A DNA stretch of 64,000 nt. Origin: Sulfurospirillum sp. (lineage in GTDB: Bacteria; Campylobacterota; Campylobacteria; Campylobacterales; Sulfurospirillaceae). The stretch is taken from assembly GCA_014859685.1 (NCBI GenBank), contig JACUTU010000002.1, positions 1 through 64,000 on the forward strand, given 5' to 3'. Positions 919 to 60,484 of this stretch are shown piece after piece. Positions within the stretch are counted from its first letter, which is position 1; each line of letters opens with the position of its first letter. The position numbers and the translations under genes are program-made. Below the pieces are notes generated by a model. The model was not told the DNA's origin. It did no database searches and saw only the letters and a program-made list of their open reading frames with translations.

Positions 919-1014
919 CGAGAGGGTGTAGGAATCGAACCTACCTTCGAACGGTCAACCGCCCAAACATCGGGTTTGAAGCCCGTGCTGCCCACCAGGG
1001 TCAGATACCCCCCA
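919..1014 (-). tRNA. selC: tRNA-Sec (selenocysteine, anticodon TCA)
   Basis: Read on the minus strand, the sequence has a T-arm of five pairs (GTAGG / CCTAC) around TTCGATT, a long variable arm, and an anticodon stem-loop GGGCTTCAAACCC whose anticodon is TCA. It is about 96 nt long, which with TCA and the long extra arm fits tRNA-Sec. The 3' acceptor strand ACCCTCTC is followed by discriminator G; the terminal CCA is not fully encoded (CCG). The 5' acceptor strand has six G plus T, one G short of a perfect 8-bp stem, and the D-stem CTGACCC/GGGCAG needs a bulged A. The organism should therefore make selenoproteins, for example formate dehydrogenase, outside this window. Confidence 0.88.
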
Positions 1015-4203: not shown

Positions 4204-5027
4204 TGAAACAAAATAAAATCATAGTTCAAGAAACACTGATCTCAATCCGTCAACACGAAAAAGATGATTTTATATCTCTTACAGATATAGCTAGATACAA
4301 AGATAGTGATAGAAGTGATTATATCTTACAAAACTGGATGAGAAATAGAGAAACTATAGAATTCCTTGGACTTTGGGAAAAAATAAATAATGAAGATTTT
4401 AATTCCATCGAATTCGATGGAATTAAAAATAAATCAGGAGTAAATAGCTTTATTCTGACCCCAAAACAGTGGATAAACAGTACAAATGCTATAGGAATCA
4501 TAAGTAAAACTGGTAGATATGGAGGAACATTCGCTCACAAAGATATAGCTTTTGAATTTGCTAGTTGGATAAGTGCTGAGTTTAAACTTTTTCTTATCAA
4601 AGAGTTTCAAAGACTCAAAAACGAAGAGATAGAAAATAAATCATTAGAATGGAACTTGAGTAGAAGCCTCTCAAAGATTAATTATAAAATCCATACAGAT
4701 GCCATAAAAGAGCATCTCATACCAAATACTATCTCAAAACCAAAAGAAGATTTTGTATATGCAAATGAAGCAGATGTTTTAAATATGGCATTATTTGGTC
4801 TAACCGCTAAGCAATGGCGAGAGAATAATCCAAAACAAGAGGGAAATATAAGAGATTATGCAAGTGTAGAACAGCTTATTGTGTTATCAAATATGGAGAG
4901 TGTAAATGCAGAACTTATCAAGCAAGGTATGAACCAATCTGATAGATTAGTAGTGCTTAATAGTATGGCAATATCTCAAATGAAATCACTAGTCAATAAT
5001 TCAACGATTAAGAAATTAGGAAAATAA
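4203..5027 (+). CDS. KilA-N domain DNA-binding protein
   Basis: The first 140 residues show a KilA-N fold: DDFISLTDIARYKDSDRSDYI, then the NWMRNRETIEFLGLWEKIN segment, and GRYGGTFAHKDIAFEFASWIS. KilA-N is a small DNA-binding domain common in phages and mobile genes. The second half is helical (about 150-274) with no known domain. GTG 4203 was preferred to TTG 4173 because GGGGAGAGAAGA lies just upstream and the latter would overlap rmlD by 31 nt. It has no clear link to sugar synthesis and splits rmlD from rmlB, so it looks like an intruder in the operon. Confidence 0.82.
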   Translation: MKQNKIIVQETLISIRQHEKDDFISLTDIARYKDSDRSDYILQNWMRNRETIEFLGLWEKINNEDFNSIEFDGIKNKSGVNSFILTPKQWINSTNAIGIISKTGRYGGTFAHKDIAFEFASWISAEFKLFLIKEFQRLKNEEIENKSLEWNLSRSLSKINYKIHTDAIKEHLIPNTISKPKEDFVYANEADVLNMALFGLTAKQWRENNPKQEGNIRDYASVEQLIVLSNMESVNAELIKQGMNQSDRLVVLNSMAISQMKSLVNNSTIKKLGK

Positions 5028-7776: not shown

Positions 7777-8147
7777 GTATTATCAAATTTGAAACTATAG
7801 AAAATAAACTCATAAAACACCATGATGAGTATATAATAGTAGATAGTGATGTAGCTCAATTATATGGTGTAGAAACTAGAGATGTCAATAAAGCAGTAAA
7901 AAATAATCCTGATAAATTTCCAGATGGATATGTTGTAGCTCTTACGAAAGATGAATTAGAAACTTTGCGGTGGAAATTTTCCACCGCAAAGTTTAATATG
8001 ACTAGAGTACCACCAAAAGTTTTCACGGAAAAAGGCTTATATATGTTAGCCACGATCATTAAGAGTAAAACAGCGACTGAAACCACCTTGAACATCATAG
8101 AAACCTTTGCAAAAGTTAGCAGAAGTATAAAAAAGATTAAGAAGTGA
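7773..8147 (+). CDS. ORF6N domain protein
   Basis: The 124 residues are almost entirely an ORF6N domain: [25 protein letters not shown] at about 22-46, [18 protein letters not shown] at about 49-66, and [19 protein letters not shown] at about 78-96. It is a phage-derived DNA-binding domain often found as small accessory genes. The protein is on the short side, with only a brief helical tail. It starts with ATG in the ATGA overlap after the chimeric pseudogene. Like the KilA-N and DUF1016 genes it has no evident sugar role. Confidence 0.82.
7960..7994. repeat. Perfect 35-bp palindrome inside the ORF6N gene
   Basis: AAACTTTGCGGTGGAAA (7960-7976), one T, then the exact complement TTTCCACCGCAAAGTTT (7978-7994). 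It encodes the variable middle of the ORF6N domain (residues about 63-74). Seventeen perfect base pairs with a one-base centre would extrude as a cruciform in DNA or form a tight hairpin in mRNA. Confidence 0.95.
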
Positions 8148-55185: not shown

Positions 55186-58100
55186 ATGTCACAAAAAATA
55201 CTCTCTTTAGATCTAGGTATTACATCCATTGGCTACAGCATTTTAAATGAAATTGAAGATGACAGGTATACTTTAGTTGATTATGGTGTAAGTATGTTTG
55301 ATAAGGCTACTGATAAAGACGACAAGTCAAAAAAGCTTGTATATAGTGCATGTAGGAGTGCTGCAAATCTTGTAAATTTGCGAAAAGAGAGAAAAAAAAA
55401 CTTAGCAAAACTTTTTGAAGAGTTTGGATTTGGAGAGAGAAAATATTTTCTATATCAAGAAAAACAAAATGTCTATAAAAATAAATGGGAATTAAGAGCA
55501 AAAAAAGCTTTTGAAGAAAAATTAAACATTGAAGAGCTGTTTACCATTTTTTATGCTATAGCCAAGCATAGAGGCTATAAATCTTTAGATACGAGTGATT
55601 TACTTGAAGAGTTATGTGCAGAATTACATATCTCTTTTGAAGATGAAAAAAGCAAAAATGATGATGAAAAAGGAAAAATTAAATCTGCTCTTAAAAAAAT
55701 AGAAAATCTTAAAATCAATTATCCAAATAAAACAGTAGCAACTATCATCTATGAAGAAGAGATGAAGGGAAAAAATCCAACATTTAGAAATCATGATAAT
55801 TACAAATATATGATAAGAAGAGAAAATATCAATGATGAGATAAAAAAAATCATAGCTTCTCAAGAAAAACTTGGATTGTTTGACAAAAATTTTAAAGTCG
55901 ATCTATTTGCTTCAAAAATTATTAAAACTATAGACGATCAAAAAGAATCATCAAATGATATGAATTTATTTGCATCCTGTAAGTTTTATAAAGAGCATAA
56001 AGTATCACACCAATATTCACTCTTAGCTGATATTTTTAAAATGTATCAAGCGGTATCAAATATCACTTTTGATAAAAAAACAGACAAAATCACAAAAAAA
56101 CAGATAAAACTTATAGCAGATGATTTTTTTGAGAAAATTAAAAAAGGAAAAAATGTACCCGATATAAAATACAAAGATATTAGAAAAATTTTAAAACTTG
56201 ATGATTGTGTAAAAATTTTTAACAAAGAAGATAGTACTTTTAACAAAGGTAAAAAACAGGAAAACAGCATCATCAAATTTCACTTTATCAATAACTTATC
56301 AAAAATAGATAATGGATTTATCGTAAAAGCTTTTGAAAAAGAAAATCCACTTGAAGAACTCAAAGAGATATTTGATGTGCTAGGGTTTGAAAAATCTCCT
56401 AAGAGTATTTATGAAAAATTAAAAAATAAAGTTGATGATAAAACTATCATAGATCTTATAAAAAATAAAACTGGGTTAAGCTTGCACATATCATCCTATG
56501 CGATGATAAAATTTATACCTTATTTTGAGCAAGGTTGTACTTTAAGCGATATAAAAAAAGAGTTAAACATAAGTGAAGATGAAGATTATGATCATTTTAA
56601 AAAAGGGATTAAATATCTCAATCTTTTGCAATTTGAAGCGGATGATAACCTGCTTATCAATAATCATACAGTCAAATATGTTGTAAGTGCTGTTTTGCGA
56701 CTCGTGAAACATTTACATGTAAAATATGGTGTTTTTGATGAGATACGAGTAGAAAGCACAAGAGAATTAAGCCTAAATGAAGAGGCAAAAAAAGAGATTG
56801 ATAAAGCCAATAAGGCATTAGAAAAAGACATAAGCGATATAGTAGCCAACAAAGAATACCAAAAAATTGCAGAGTATTATGGAAAAAATTTACAAAAATA
56901 CGCTCGAAAAATATTGTTGTATGAGGAACAAAATAGACGAGATATTTACACGGGAGAGGGAATAGCGTTTGAGGATATATTTACAAATGCTGTAGATTTA
57001 GACCATATAGTTCCACAAAGTTTGGGCGGACTTTCTGTAAAGCATAATTTTGTTTTAGTGCATAGGGATAGCAATATGCAAAAATCCAATCAACTCCCTA
57101 TGAATTTTATAAAAGATAGAGAGGATTTTAAAAATAGAGTTGAAGACTTGTTTAAACAGCATAAAATCAATTGGAAAAAGAAGATTAATTTACTTGCCAC
57201 TACTCTTGAAGAAATTTTTAAAGATACTTTTGAGAGTAAAAGCTTGAGAGCTACAAGTTACATAGAGGCATTAACTGCTCAAGCGTTAAAAAGATATTAT
57301 CCATTTCCAAATCAAACTAAAAACTCCATGGAGATACGATACATACAAGGAAGAGCTACATCAAATATAAGAAAACTTTTACATGTAAAAACAAAAACAA
57401 GAGATACCAACATCCACCATGCAATAGATGCCATTCTTGTAGGACTTACAAATAAATCTTGGTTGCAAAAACTTTCAAATACTTTTAGGGAAAATCTTGG
57501 AAAAATTGATGATGAAGCACGAGCAAATATCAAAAAATCAATACCACTGATAGAAGGGATTGAACCAAAAGAATTGATAGAATTGATAGAGGATAGATAC
57601 AATAAATTTGGTGTAGAGAGCATTTTTTATGAAGATATTTTTGAAACTATAAAAACAATCAATTTTTGGGTATCAAAAAAACCTATGGTTTCAAAAATTC
57701 ATAAAGATACCATTTACAGCAAAAAACAAAATGGTATTTTTACCGTTCGAGAAAATATCAAAGCTAAATTTAACACACTCAATATCTCCCCTACAACTAA
57801 AGCAGAAATTTTTATGGAAAGTTTCAAAAAAGAGATTTTAGCAAAAATGTATCTTTATAAAACAAATCCAAATGATGTGGTGTGTAAAATAGTTCAAAAA
57901 AGAGCAGATGAAATCGTTAAGCTTTTAAATGAATTTATTCAGCTTGATGCAAAAGATAAGGCATTGATGAGTGAAGCCAAAACAAAATTAGATGATTTGA
58001 TTCATGCTCCACTTATAGATAACAACGGCAATGAGATACGAAAAGTGAAGTTTTATCAAACAAATCTGACAGGTTTTGAGATAAGAGGGGGACTCGCAAC

Positions 58101-58533
58101 CAAAGAAAAAACTTTTATAGGTTTTAAAGCGGTGTTAAAAAATGATACTTTACAATACGAGAGGATAGATGCATCAAATTTTGAAAAATTAAAAAAAGAA
58201 AATGATAATAGTTTTAAAGTCTATAAAAATGACTTGGTATTTTTTATCTATCCAAACGGAACTACTAAGGGCGGAAAGATAGTGAGTTTTCTTGAAGATA
58301 AAAAAACAAGTGCATTTTCAAACCCAAGATTCCCTGCAAGTATTTCAAATCAACCCCATTCATTTTTGGCTTTCTTTAATGGCAAACCAAATAGCCATAA
58401 ACAACATTCTGTTGGAAAAGCCATAGGAATTATCAAACTAAATCTTGATATTTTGGGCAATATCAAATCCTATGCAACCATAGGAGAAGCTCAAAGTGAA
58501 GTTTTAGAATTTATCAAAAATATAAAAAGTTGA
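55186..58533 (+). CDS. cas9: CRISPR-associated endonuclease Cas9 (type II-C)
   Basis: The 1115-residue RNA-guided nuclease has a full set of active-site residues: RuvC-I D9 in LSLDLGITSIGYSIL, RuvC-II E523 in IRVESTREL, HNH H607 in VDLDHIVPQSLGG with the asparagine-rich FVLVHRDSNMQKSN, and RuvC-III H745 and D748 in NIHHAIDAILVGL. The bridge-helix region (about 50-75, ACRSAANLVNLRKERKKNLA) is much less arginine-rich than in typical Cas9. Size, lack of csn2/cas4, repeat promoters and tracrRNA placement point to II-C. AAGGAA precedes ATG 55186. The PAM cannot be read from sequence. Confidence 0.97.
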   Translation: MSQKILSLDLGITSIGYSILNEIEDDRYTLVDYGVSMFDKATDKDDKSKKLVYSACRSAANLVNLRKERKKNLAKLFEEFGFGERKYFLYQEKQNVYKNKWELRAKKAFEEKLNIEELFTIFYAIAKHRGYKSLDTSDLLEELCAELHISFEDEKSKNDDEKGKIKSALKKIENLKINYPNKTVATIIYEEEMKGKNPTFRNHDNYKYMIRRENINDEIKKIIASQEKLGLFDKNFKVDLFASKIIKTIDDQKESSNDMNLFASCKFYKEHKVSHQYSLLADIFKMYQAVSNITFDKKTDKITKKQIKLIADDFFEKIKKGKNVPDIKYKDIRKILKLDDCVKIFNKEDSTFNKGKKQENSIIKFHFINNLSKIDNGFIVKAFEKENPLEELKEIFDVLGFEKSPKSIYEKLKNKVDDKTIIDLIKNKTGLSLHISSYAMIKFIPYFEQGCTLSDIKKELNISEDEDYDHFKKGIKYLNLLQFEADDNLLINNHTVKYVVSAVLRLVKHLHVKYGVFDEIRVESTRELSLNEEAKKEIDKANKALEKDISDIVANKEYQKIAEYYGKNLQKYARKILLYEEQNRRDIYTGEGIAFEDIFTNAVDLDHIVPQSLGGLSVKHNFVLVHRDSNMQKSNQLPMNFIKDREDFKNRVEDLFKQHKINWKKKINLLATTLEEIFKDTFESKSLRATSYIEALTAQALKRYYPFPNQTKNSMEIRYIQGRATSNIRKLLHVKTKTRDTNIHHAIDAILVGLTNKSWLQKLSNTFRENLGKIDDEARANIKKSIPLIEGIEPKELIELIEDRYNKFGVESIFYEDIFETIKTINFWVSKKPMVSKIHKDTIYSKKQNGIFTVRENIKAKFNTLNISPTTKAEIFMESFKKEILAKMYLYKTNPNDVVCKIVQKRADEIVKLLNEFIQLDAKDKALMSEAKTKLDDLIHAPLIDNNGNEIRKVKFYQTNLTGFEIRGGLATKEKTFIGFKAVLKNDTLQYERIDASNFEKLKKENDNSFKVYKNDLVFFIYPNGTTKGGKIVSFLEDKKTSAFSNPRFPASISNQPHSFLAFFNGKPNSHKQHSVGKAIGIIKLNLDILGNIKSYATIGEAQSEVLEFIKNIKS

Positions 58534-58537
58534 TACT

Positions 58538-59473
58538 GTGGGCTGGAAAGTAGTGCATCTTACCCGTCCTTGTAAGATAAAAGTTGTAAGTGAAAATTTA
58601 TTGGTTCATTTTTATGATGATGACCAAAAAGTAAAAGTGACTCTAGGTGATATAGATTTTATCCTTTTTGATAACACCCATTTTTCTATCACAGGAACTA
58701 GTTTGGAACTGTTGGCTAAAAAAAATATCGCTGCTTTATTTATCGATGAGGAGTTCCACCCTTGTGCTATCTTAAGCCCTTACCATCAGCACTCTACGAT
58801 GAGAGAAATTGCTGATTTGCAAGTTTCTATCCCCCAAGATTTTCGAGCAATAATCTGGAAAAAGATAGTTACATGTAAGATTCAAAATCAAGCATCTGTA
58901 CTCGAGTTTTTTCTAAATCCTACATGTAAAGATTTGCTAAAACTTGCAAAAAAAGTTCAGATGTATGATCAAAATCAAGATGAGGCTCAGGCTGCAAGGT
59001 TGTATTGGAAATCTTTTTTTAAACAAGAGGGTTTTAGGCGAGACCAAAAAAGTGAAGATATACTTAATGCCATGCTCAATTATAGTTATGCGATTTTGCG
59101 AGCCTCAGTTGCGAGAAGTGTAAGTGCTAGTGGAATGTTGCCTGTTTTTGGTATCTGGCATAAAAATAGATACAACGCCTTTGCTCTTGTGGATGATTTG
59201 ATGGAAGTGTTTCGCCCAATTTGCGACTTACATGTAAAGCTTCTATATGAGACAAGATATAAAAAAGAAAATACTCTAAAACTAGAAATAAAAAGAGATT
59301 TAACTTCTCTTTTAACTATGCCGTGTATAAAGTTTCAAGCTGGGATATCCTCTGTCTCTCAAGCAGTAGATAGTTTTATAAGAGAGTATAAAAAAATTAT
59401 GATGAGTGGCGAAGTGGAAGCTTTGACATTTCCTTCTATTGACTTCGGTTTTTTTAAATATGAGTGCATTTAG
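58538..59473 (+). CDS. cas1: CRISPR-associated integrase Cas1
   Basis: Subunit of the spacer integrase. The C-terminal helical domain shows ILNAMLNYSYAILRASVARS (about 180-199), the catalytic histidine in LPVFGIWHKNRYNAFALVDD (about 206-225), then LMEVFRPICDLHVK and IREYKKIM near the end. It begins at GTG 58538, 4 nt after cas9, and overlaps cas2. It holds three TACATGTA palindromes. The 311 residues fit the type II Cas1 length. Confidence 0.95.
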   Translation: MGWKVVHLTRPCKIKVVSENLLVHFYDDDQKVKVTLGDIDFILFDNTHFSITGTSLELLAKKNIAALFIDEEFHPCAILSPYHQHSTMREIADLQVSIPQDFRAIIWKKIVTCKIQNQASVLEFFLNPTCKDLLKLAKKVQMYDQNQDEAQAARLYWKSFFKQEGFRRDQKSEDILNAMLNYSYAILRASVARSVSASGMLPVFGIWHKNRYNAFALVDDLMEVFRPICDLHVKLLYETRYKKENTLKLEIKRDLTSLLTMPCIKFQAGISSVSQAVDSFIREYKKIMMSGEVEALTFPSIDFGFFKYECI

Positions 59474-59792
59474 AATCATGTGGCTTATGTTGATGTTTGA
59501 TTTGCCTACAAAAAGTGCAAAAGATAAAAAAAGATATCATTGGTTTCACAAAGAATTAGAAAAAGAGGGCTATCATAGACTTCAATACTCTGTATACGGA
59601 AAGATATTTAGCTCTTCTGATTCTGCAAATTATGGTAAAAAGAGAATCAAAGAGTTTGTCAAAAAAAATATCAAACATGGAAACATTAGAATTCTCATTT
59701 TTACAGATAAACAATTTGCAGCAATGGATATAATAATTGGAGAACCAACTGTTGAGGAGAAAAACGAACCAAGGCAATTGTTACTATTTTAA
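59460..59792 (+). CDS. cas2: CRISPR-associated protein Cas2
   Basis: Partner of Cas1 in spacer acquisition. The ferredoxin-like fold starts MSAFRIMWLMLMFDLPTKSA with the conserved D, then KRYHWFHKELEKEGYHRLQY and the strand NIRILIFTDKQFAAMDII. ATG 59460 gives 110 residues; an upstream TTG 59439 is less likely. The stop TAA sits at the edge of the tracrRNA terminator on the other strand. Confidence 0.94.
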   Translation: MSAFRIMWLMLMFDLPTKSAKDKKRYHWFHKELEKEGYHRLQYSVYGKIFSSSDSANYGKKRIKEFVKKNIKHGNIRILIFTDKQFAAMDIIIGEPTVEEKNEPRQLLLF

Positions 59793-59888
59793 AAAAGGGC
59801 GATAGCCGAAACTACCGCCTAAAGTCAGCCATCTCTTGGAGATAGCCTTAGTTTAATACCCCTATTAAACTAGCGTGTGATACAACGC
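59792..59888 (-). ncRNA. tracrRNA
   Basis: On the minus strand, bases 59886-59851 are an anti-repeat matching the CRISPR repeat except in the middle. A nexus-like stem follows (GCTATCTC/GAGATGGC with loop CAA, 59846-59828), and then a terminator stem (GGCGGTAG/CTATCGCC, 59819-59798) ending in six T. It is transcribed towards cas2, opposite to the array. The RNA of about 97 nt would pair with pre-crRNA and load Cas9. Confidence 0.9.
59798..59819 (-). terminator. tracrRNA terminator
   Basis: Minus-strand stem GGCGGTAG / CTATCGCC (one G-U) with loop TTTCGG, followed by C and six T (complement of 59791-59796). It has no T-run on the plus strand, so it works only for the tracrRNA. Confidence 0.85.
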
Positions 59889-59894
59889 TACAAA

Positions 59895-59923
59895 ATTATA
59901 CAAAAATTTTGGTAAAATCCCAA
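59895..59923 (-). promoter_or_regulatory. tracrRNA promoter
   Basis: On the minus strand TTGGGA (59923-59918), a 17-bp spacer and a perfect TATAAT (59900-59895) predict a start near 59888, just before the anti-repeat. Confidence 0.8.
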
Positions 59924-59962: not shown

Positions 59963-60319
59963 GTTTTAATACCCCTACAAGCTAGTGTGTGATACAATAT
60001 AGAGGTGTGGGAAGTATAACTCCTATTCGTTTTAATACCCCTACAAGCTAGTGTGTGATACAATTTTTTGGAAAAAAACACTCAAGTGATGCCAGTTTTA
60101 ATACCCCTACAAGCTAGTGTGTGATACAATATATGTATAGATACATTTATTTTGTAAACCGTTTTAATACCCCTACAAGCTAGTGTGTGATACAATTTAC
60201 CGCAGTTATTCTTTAGTGCTTGTATGTGTTTTAATACCCCTACAAGCTAGTGTGTGATACAATAGATTTGTCTAGATCTACACTTAGTTTAGAGTTTTAA
60301 TACCCCTACAAGCTAGTGT
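59963..60319 (+). CRISPR. CRISPR array, five 36-bp repeats plus a truncated one, five spacers
   Basis: Repeats start GTTTTAATACCCCTACAAGC and end GATACAAT; full copies begin at 59963, 60029, 60095, 60161 and 60228 and are identical. Spacers are 30, 30, 30, 31 and 30 bp. The sixth copy (60294-60319) keeps only the first 26 bases and lacks the end. Each full repeat ends in TGATACAAT, an extended -10 element, so transcription can start inside each following spacer, as known for Neisseria II-C arrays. The intact end faces the tracrRNA, suggesting the leader is at 59924-59962. Confidence 0.97.
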
Positions 60320-60484
60320 CTTAAATTGTGAAAAAACTCTAATTTACTCCCATATAAACAAACTCTCAAAAATAAAGCTAAACAAATAAAAAGTATATTT
60401 TGGATAAAATTTTGTGAGCTTGCGATGTTGAGTTCACTTTTTGTAAATAAAAAACGCCGTTTTTGGCTTGAGATAGGGTGAAGT

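What the first reader, a model, noticed from the sequence alone, without database searches (positions are those of the whole stretch)
59851..59870. The tracrRNA anti-repeat is itself a perfect hairpin
The plus-strand segment GTTTAATACCCCTATTAAAC has 8-bp perfect inverted arms around CCCC. In the CRISPR repeat the matching stretch (GTTTTAATACCCCTACAAGC) is not self-complementary. The anti-repeat therefore differs from the repeat at just the bases that let it fold back on itself. The tracrRNA could switch between pairing with crRNA and an internal stem, a possible control over guide loading or Cas9 levels.
Basis: partly seen in the sequence, partly recalled or inferred. Interest (0 to 1): 0.68.

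Follow-up and report, generated by a model that had tools for sequence, protein, structure and literature searches.

The report
Self-locked Cas9 tracrRNA anti-repeat
In one lineage of bacterial Cas9 immune systems, the helper RNA that must pair with the guide RNA is built to fold up on itself first, which may stop Cas9 from being loaded with the wrong RNAs.

Summary
The segment is the anti-repeat of a minus-strand tracrRNA gene in a II-C-type cas9-cas1-cas2 locus. The inverted repeat has 10 perfect pairs (59849-59872), not 8, and a second, 5' hairpin folds most of the rest of the anti-repeat. Predicted pair probabilities in free tracrRNA are 0.95-0.997. All 11 tracrRNAs found in the same Cas9 clade keep the GGGG hairpin, with one compensatory G-C to A-U change and one G-U. 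In 6 of 7 loci tested, the changes separating anti-repeat from repeat stabilise the self-fold more than random changes do (P 0.001-0.02; weaker in a rerun), although every change weakens the crRNA duplex. The sister Cas9 clade mostly lacks the hairpin. Similar hairpins recur in one of its members, another Campylobacterota locus and Bacilli/Mycoplasmatota loci.

It is not a balanced switch: a cognate repeat wins by 11-34 kcal/mol. No link to cas9 promoter control was found. Best reading: a lock that only a true repeat opens, reducing mis-pairing with other RNAs. Structure and conservation are computed; function is inferred. I judge it a new variant of a known kind (tracrRNA).

The parts
59849..59872 (-). 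10-bp perfect hairpin UAGUUUAAUA-GGGG-UAUUAAACUA, which sequesters the 3' half of the anti-repeat
   Evidence: (-7.0 kcal/mol alone; pair probability 0.95-0.997 in the full tracrRNA)
59872..59889 (-). 5' hairpin AGCG-(10 nt)-CGCU; its 5' arm lies at the predicted transcript start and its 3' arm in the anti-repeat
   Evidence: equivalent hairpins in relatives with changed bases (CAAUG/CAUUG, CUAUG/CAUAG)
59851..59885 (-). tracrRNA anti-repeat
   Evidence: Alignment to the CRISPR repeat
59791..59889 (-). predicted tracrRNA (start about 59889 +/-2, inferred from the promoter)
   Evidence: Promoter and terminator scan; covariance model match 59790-59892, 95.9 bits (the window is a member of the model)
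59895..59923 (-). tracrRNA promoter: TTGGGA (59923-59918), 17 nt, TATAAT (59900-59895)
   Evidence: 10 of 12 consensus positions; a consensus match only
59827..59847 (-). nexus-like stem-loop
   Evidence: compensatory changes across relatives
59798..59819 (-). intrinsic terminator stem, followed by CTTTTTT
55186..58533 (+). cas9, 1115 aa
   Evidence: (HNH_4, RuvC_III)
58538..59473 (+). cas1
   Evidence: PF01867
59460..59792 (+). cas2 (in-frame ATG at 59460; the ORF list starts it at TTG 59439)
   Evidence: PF09827
59963..60329 (+). CRISPR array: five full 36-nt repeats GTTTTAATACCCCTACAAGCTAGTGTGTGATACAAT plus a sixth, degenerate terminal repeat from 60294

Best explanation
The tracrRNA of this locus and its relatives is made in a self-locked form. 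Two hairpins hold most of the anti-repeat; the main one hides the 3' end that must pair with the first bases of the crRNA repeat and leaves a GGGG loop exposed. A true repeat can start pairing through its CCCC (inferred) and then displace the hairpin into a long, nearly continuous duplex for RNase III and Cas9. An RNA with only partial complementarity cannot repay the opening cost of roughly 13 kcal/mol. The hairpin therefore acts as a molecular-beacon-like stringency gate against loading Cas9 with non-CRISPR RNAs. Computed here: the fold, its conservation, the excess self-folding relative to random changes, and the predicted specificity gain. Inferred: GGGG:CCCC nucleation, and that avoiding mis-loading is the selected benefit.
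For: Free tracrRNA is predicted as four stem-loops with the hairpin at P 0.95-0.997; the GGGG hairpin is in the minimum-energy fold of all 9 loci first examined and the four-stem layout in 7 of them. All 11 tracrRNAs of the clade keep the hairpin, with a G-C to A-U exchange in L059 and a G-U in L058 that also pairs with that locus's own repeat. Self-fold exceeds that from the same number of random edits in 6 of 7 loci (P 0.022, 0.014, 0.002, 0.004, 0.001, 0.002; exception L033 0.17), while every edit costs duplex energy. Folding is better on the tracrRNA strand than on the opposite strand in 9 of 11 loci. Opening cost is 13.1 kcal/mol versus 5.3 for an exact repeat complement; segments of the window with predicted net binding of -10 kcal/mol or better fall from 495 to 0 of 6,324, while the cognate repeat keeps -33. 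Campylobacter jejuni tracrRNA does capture cellular RNAs, mainly through pairing at the anti-repeat 3' end (PMC8224270), the part hidden here; a C. jejuni anti-repeat recalled from memory folds at only -0.5 kcal/mol. The self-paired trait needs at least three changes on the Cas9 tree, and A-U/G-C swapped versions occur in Bacilli loci.
Against: No experiment. Energies are 37 C model values without Cas9, RNase III or chaperones. Six of the ten main-hairpin pairs never vary in the clade, so covariation there is thin. A rerun with other flanks gives weaker values: W P 0.052, L031 0.050, L149 0.076, L142 0.21, L033 0.22. The sister clade does without the hairpin, so Cas9 function does not generally need it. 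The predicted specificity gain is partly a restatement of the fold energy.
Confidence: 0.45

Rival explanations
1. Stability or holding form: the hairpins protect free tracrRNA from decay, or give Cas9 a lower-stem-like helix to hold before a crRNA arrives, with no selected effect on specificity.
For: The 5' hairpin sits at the very start of the predicted transcript. The main hairpin resembles a lower stem with a tetraloop next to the nexus.
Against: Does not explain by itself why the fold is kept at the cost of duplex energy, or why the sister clade and the Campylobacter-type loci lack it.
Confidence: 0.25
2. By-product: the anti-repeat only needs a bulge opposite the repeat, and because the ancestral repeat was nearly palindromic, the bulge base happened to complete a palindrome.
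For: Repeats of several relatives are near-palindromes (GTTTTAATACCCCTATAAAC) two indels from perfect. Anti-repeats of the unlocked sister clade also carry extra bases at this point.
Against: Does not explain the separate 5' hairpin or the edits that create it, the compensatory change in L059, or the recurrence in L041, L045 and the Bacilli loci.
Confidence: 0.17
3. Natural single-guide RNA like S. pyogenes tracr-L: the 5' arm GUUUAAUA mimics the crRNA repeat and the upstream ~20 nt guides Cas9 to repress a promoter.
For: Same outline: repeat-like arm, tetraloop, anti-repeat arm, nexus. tracr-L represses Pcas with an 11-nt match (PMC11417352).
Against: The would-be guide is itself folded in a hairpin with base changes on both sides across relatives. 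No match to the cas9 promoter beyond chance in 9 loci. In its own genome the last 13 nt match exactly only the tracrRNA gene; one-mismatch hits are the array repeats and one other site.
Confidence: 0.08
4. The element acts on DNA or in plus-strand RNA: a regulator's palindromic operator, or a hairpin upstream of the array that limits read-through or extraneous crRNA.
For: A 24-bp palindrome resembles an operator. Helices upstream of type II-C arrays are enriched (PMC12080349).
Against: Folding is better on the tracrRNA strand in 9 of 11 loci, and the G-U pairs are valid only there.
Confidence: 0.05

Closest known systems
Type II-C tracrRNA of Campylobacter jejuni (PMC3656092, PMC8224270)
   Same: cas9-cas1-cas2 with a tracrRNA and array; -10-like TACAAT at the repeat end, as in repeat-embedded promoters; anti-repeat, nexus, terminator.
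   Different: The C. jejuni anti-repeat (recalled from memory) is predicted open, and C. jejuni tracrRNA is documented to capture cellular RNAs. Here the anti-repeat is predicted folded shut.
S. pyogenes tracr-L natural single-guide RNA (PMC11417352)
   Same: An anti-repeat that pairs within the tracrRNA itself, giving an sgRNA-like outline.
   Different: tracr-L is a longer isoform with a guide that matches Pcas; here the only predicted transcript is short, the upstream part is a hairpin, and no promoter match was found.
Hairpins that counter extraneous crRNA in type II-C arrays (PMC12080349)
   Same: RNA hairpins near type II-C arrays that keep Cas9 from wrong guides.
   Different: Those sequester the ecrRNA guide or terminate transcription on the array strand; this one is inside the tracrRNA.
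Molecular beacons (general nucleic-acid principle, own knowledge)
   Same: A self-paired probe opened only by a sufficiently complementary partner.
   Different: Works-like comparison only; no natural tracrRNA of this kind was found in the papers searched.

Membership tests
Type II CRISPR-Cas tracrRNA | Anti-repeat complementary to the CRISPR repeat, outside the array | tested here: met
   35-nt anti-repeat, predicted duplex about -46 kcal/mol
Type II CRISPR-Cas tracrRNA | Nexus-like stem and 3' intrinsic terminator after the anti-repeat | tested here: met
Type II CRISPR-Cas tracrRNA | Transcribed, and processed together with crRNA by RNase III | not testable with these tools
   Promoter-like site only
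Subtype II-C | cas9, cas1 and cas2 only, no csn2 or cas4 in the operon | tested here: met
   no other ORF between cas9 and the array; the neighbouring ORFs outside the operon were not profile-searched
Natural single-guide RNA (tracr-L) | 5' guide matching the cas promoter | tested here: not met
Self-locked tracrRNA (working term used here) | The 8 nt that bind repeat positions 1-8 are self-paired in the free RNA, with a perfect stem of at least 6 bp | tested here: met
   W mean pairing 0.87, stem 9 bp within the limits used there (10 bp in full)

The most novel reading that the evidence does not exclude
A self-locking tracrRNA anti-repeat arose several times among Cas9 systems as a specificity device: an intramolecular hairpin traded against duplex strength so that only genuine CRISPR repeats, not cellular RNAs, can arm Cas9.
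Probability: 0.35. Interest if true: 0.75.

Novelty: new variant of a known kind. Interest (0 to 1): 0.52.

Why it matters
tracrRNAs can pair with cellular RNAs and turn them into guides (PMC8224270); how bacteria limit this is open. A lineage whose tracrRNA anti-repeat is predicted to be shut until a true repeat opens it makes that question testable, and a self-locked anti-repeat could be a simple design rule for more selective reprogrammed tracrRNAs.

Tried and rejected
Viral contigs: no relative of this Cas9. Rfam: no family covers the tracrRNA at the gathering threshold. Natural sgRNA against the cas9 promoter: no match beyond chance. Plus-strand or DNA palindrome: weaker folding on that strand. 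General property of all tracrRNAs: rejected, because ten of the eleven sister-clade members on the Cas9 tree, and the Campylobacter- and Alphaproteobacteria-type loci, lack a stem of 6 bp or more (L036 was not scored there but has the same anti-repeat as L035). Weak covariance-model hits in L145-L148 have no CRISPR array nearby, and L146/L147 look like ordinary terminators. The 'locked' label in the tree was assigned by inspection before the objective stem measure; by that measure L041 would also count, adding a further change. L104 sits on a very long branch in that tree, so its place is unsure.

Full report
The locus. The window carries cas9 (55186-58533), cas1 (58538-59473) and cas2 (59460-59792) on the plus strand and a short CRISPR array (59963-60329) of five full 36-nt repeats and one degenerate terminal repeat. 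Between cas2 and the array lies a tracrRNA gene on the minus strand: a promoter-like site TTGGGA-17-TATAAT, an anti-repeat, a nexus-like stem and an intrinsic terminator. The nearest genome is in the same genus, and the same contig appears in a named collection as Sulfurospirillum sp. UBA12182.

The observation. The inverted repeat is real and longer than reported: TAGTTTAATA-CCCC-TATTAAACTA at 59849-59872, 10 bp. It lies in the anti-repeat, and in the tracrRNA it reads UAGUUUAAUA-GGGG-UAUUAAACUA. A second hairpin at the 5' end (AGCG...CGCU, 59872-59889) folds most of the rest, so the free tracrRNA is predicted as four stem-loops with the anti-repeat largely paired. The repeat RNA is nearly unstructured (-1.6 kcal/mol).

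Relatives. A Cas9 search in 399 genomes of the order, one scan of a named genome collection and a covariance model gave 11 tracrRNAs of the same Cas9 clade (57-84% identity to this Cas9 where measured). All keep the GGGG hairpin. One has A-U in place of the outer G-C of the 8-bp core (L059), and one has a G-U that also pairs with that locus's own repeat (L058). A 5' hairpin is predicted in most loci, with bases changed on both sides (CAAUG/CAUUG, CUAUG/CAUAG, AGCG/CGCU). Its register differs in W and L031, and L033 lacks it in the predicted fold.

Is it more than chance? For seven loci I changed the repeat at random by the same number and kind of edits and refolded. The natural anti-repeat self-folds better in six (P 0.022, 0.014, 0.002, 0.004, 0.001, 0.002) and not in L033 (0.17). 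A rerun with other flanks and slightly fewer counted edits gave weaker values for W (0.052), L031 (0.050), L149 (0.076), L142 (0.21) and L033 (0.22), and similar ones for L032, L058 and L068 (0.002-0.014). The loci are related, so these values are not independent. Of 36 edits over nine loci, 27 stabilise the self-fold and all 36 weaken the repeat duplex. Single random edits to the repeat complement stabilise 42% of the time, measured from the repeat rather than by reversion. Covariation over both hairpins exceeds the shuffled and slid controls (0 of 500 shuffles for score and percentage paired; 14 of 500 for pairs changed on both sides), but most of it is in the 5' hairpin.

How far it extends. 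On a Cas9 tree every member of the window's clade is self-paired, while its sister clade of eleven was labelled unlocked; the label needs at least three changes. An objective measure shows stems of 6-9 bp in the clade, in one sister-clade member (L041, UUUAAGA/UCUUAAA), in L045 (AUUUCAAU/AUUGAAAU), in L104 and in a Bacilli/Mycoplasmatota group (UUACAG/CUGUAA or UUGCAG/CUGCAA), against 2-5 bp in the rest. In three of the Bacilli loci (L083, L084, L088) the perfect self-hairpin coexists with a predicted mismatch in the repeat duplex (repeat TTGGAG; sequences). The subtype of those loci was not determined.

Mechanism. With a repeat present the duplex wins by 34 (36 nt), 14.5 (24 nt) or 11 kcal/mol (14 nt) over the separate folded RNAs, so this is not a two-state switch at equilibrium. 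The hairpins instead raise the cost of opening from 5.3 to 13.1 kcal/mol. Scanning the window's own sequence as a stand-in for cellular RNA, the number of 40-nt segments with predicted net binding of -10 kcal/mol or better falls from 495 to 0 of 6,324, while the true repeat keeps -33. C. [quoted passage not shown] I therefore favour a stringency gate. That the selected benefit is avoidance of mis-loading is inference; protection of free tracrRNA is a serious rival.

Alternatives tested. A tracr-L-like natural guide RNA (PMC11417352) is disfavoured: the upstream segment is folded, matches no cas9 promoter above chance and has no other exact target in its genome. A role of the opposite strand or of DNA symmetry is disfavoured by better folding on the tracrRNA strand in 9 of 11 loci. 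Hairpins near type II-C arrays that counter extraneous crRNA are known (PMC12080349) but act on the array strand.

Literature. Searches of the held open-access library for tracrRNA anti-repeats that are self-complementary, intramolecular or refolding found no description of this feature. Most subscription papers are missing from it, so this is not proof of novelty.

Limits. No expression data; the tracrRNA start is inferred from a promoter match. Folding is by nearest-neighbour models at 37 C without protein.

Noticed in passing
59963-60329: Each full repeat ends in TGTGATACAAT, an extended -10-like sequence, as in type II-C arrays where every repeat carries its own promoter; the tracrRNA copy has TACAAC instead.
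   Followed up: no
60294-60329: The sixth, terminal repeat is degenerate after TAGTGT.
   Followed up: no
L082, L083, L084, L087, L088, L090, L098, L099, L103, L106: Bacilli/Mycoplasmatota Cas9 loci have anti-repeats with a perfect TTACAG-GTTA-CTGTAA or TTGCAG-GTTA/GTTG-CTGCAA hairpin next to the nexus; in L083, L084 and L088 the repeat (TTGGAG) pairs with it imperfectly.
   Followed up: partly
L059, 9744-9910: An Aliarcobacter-type locus with a self-paired tracrRNA but only degenerate repeats beside it; the array may be decaying.
   Followed up: no
4397-4428 and 7960-7994: Longer perfect inverted repeats (14 and 16 bp arms) elsewhere in the window, possibly terminators.
   Followed up: no
920-1013 (minus strand): Selenocysteine tRNA (Rfam RF01852, 56.8 bits), so the genome probably makes selenoproteins.
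   Followed up: no
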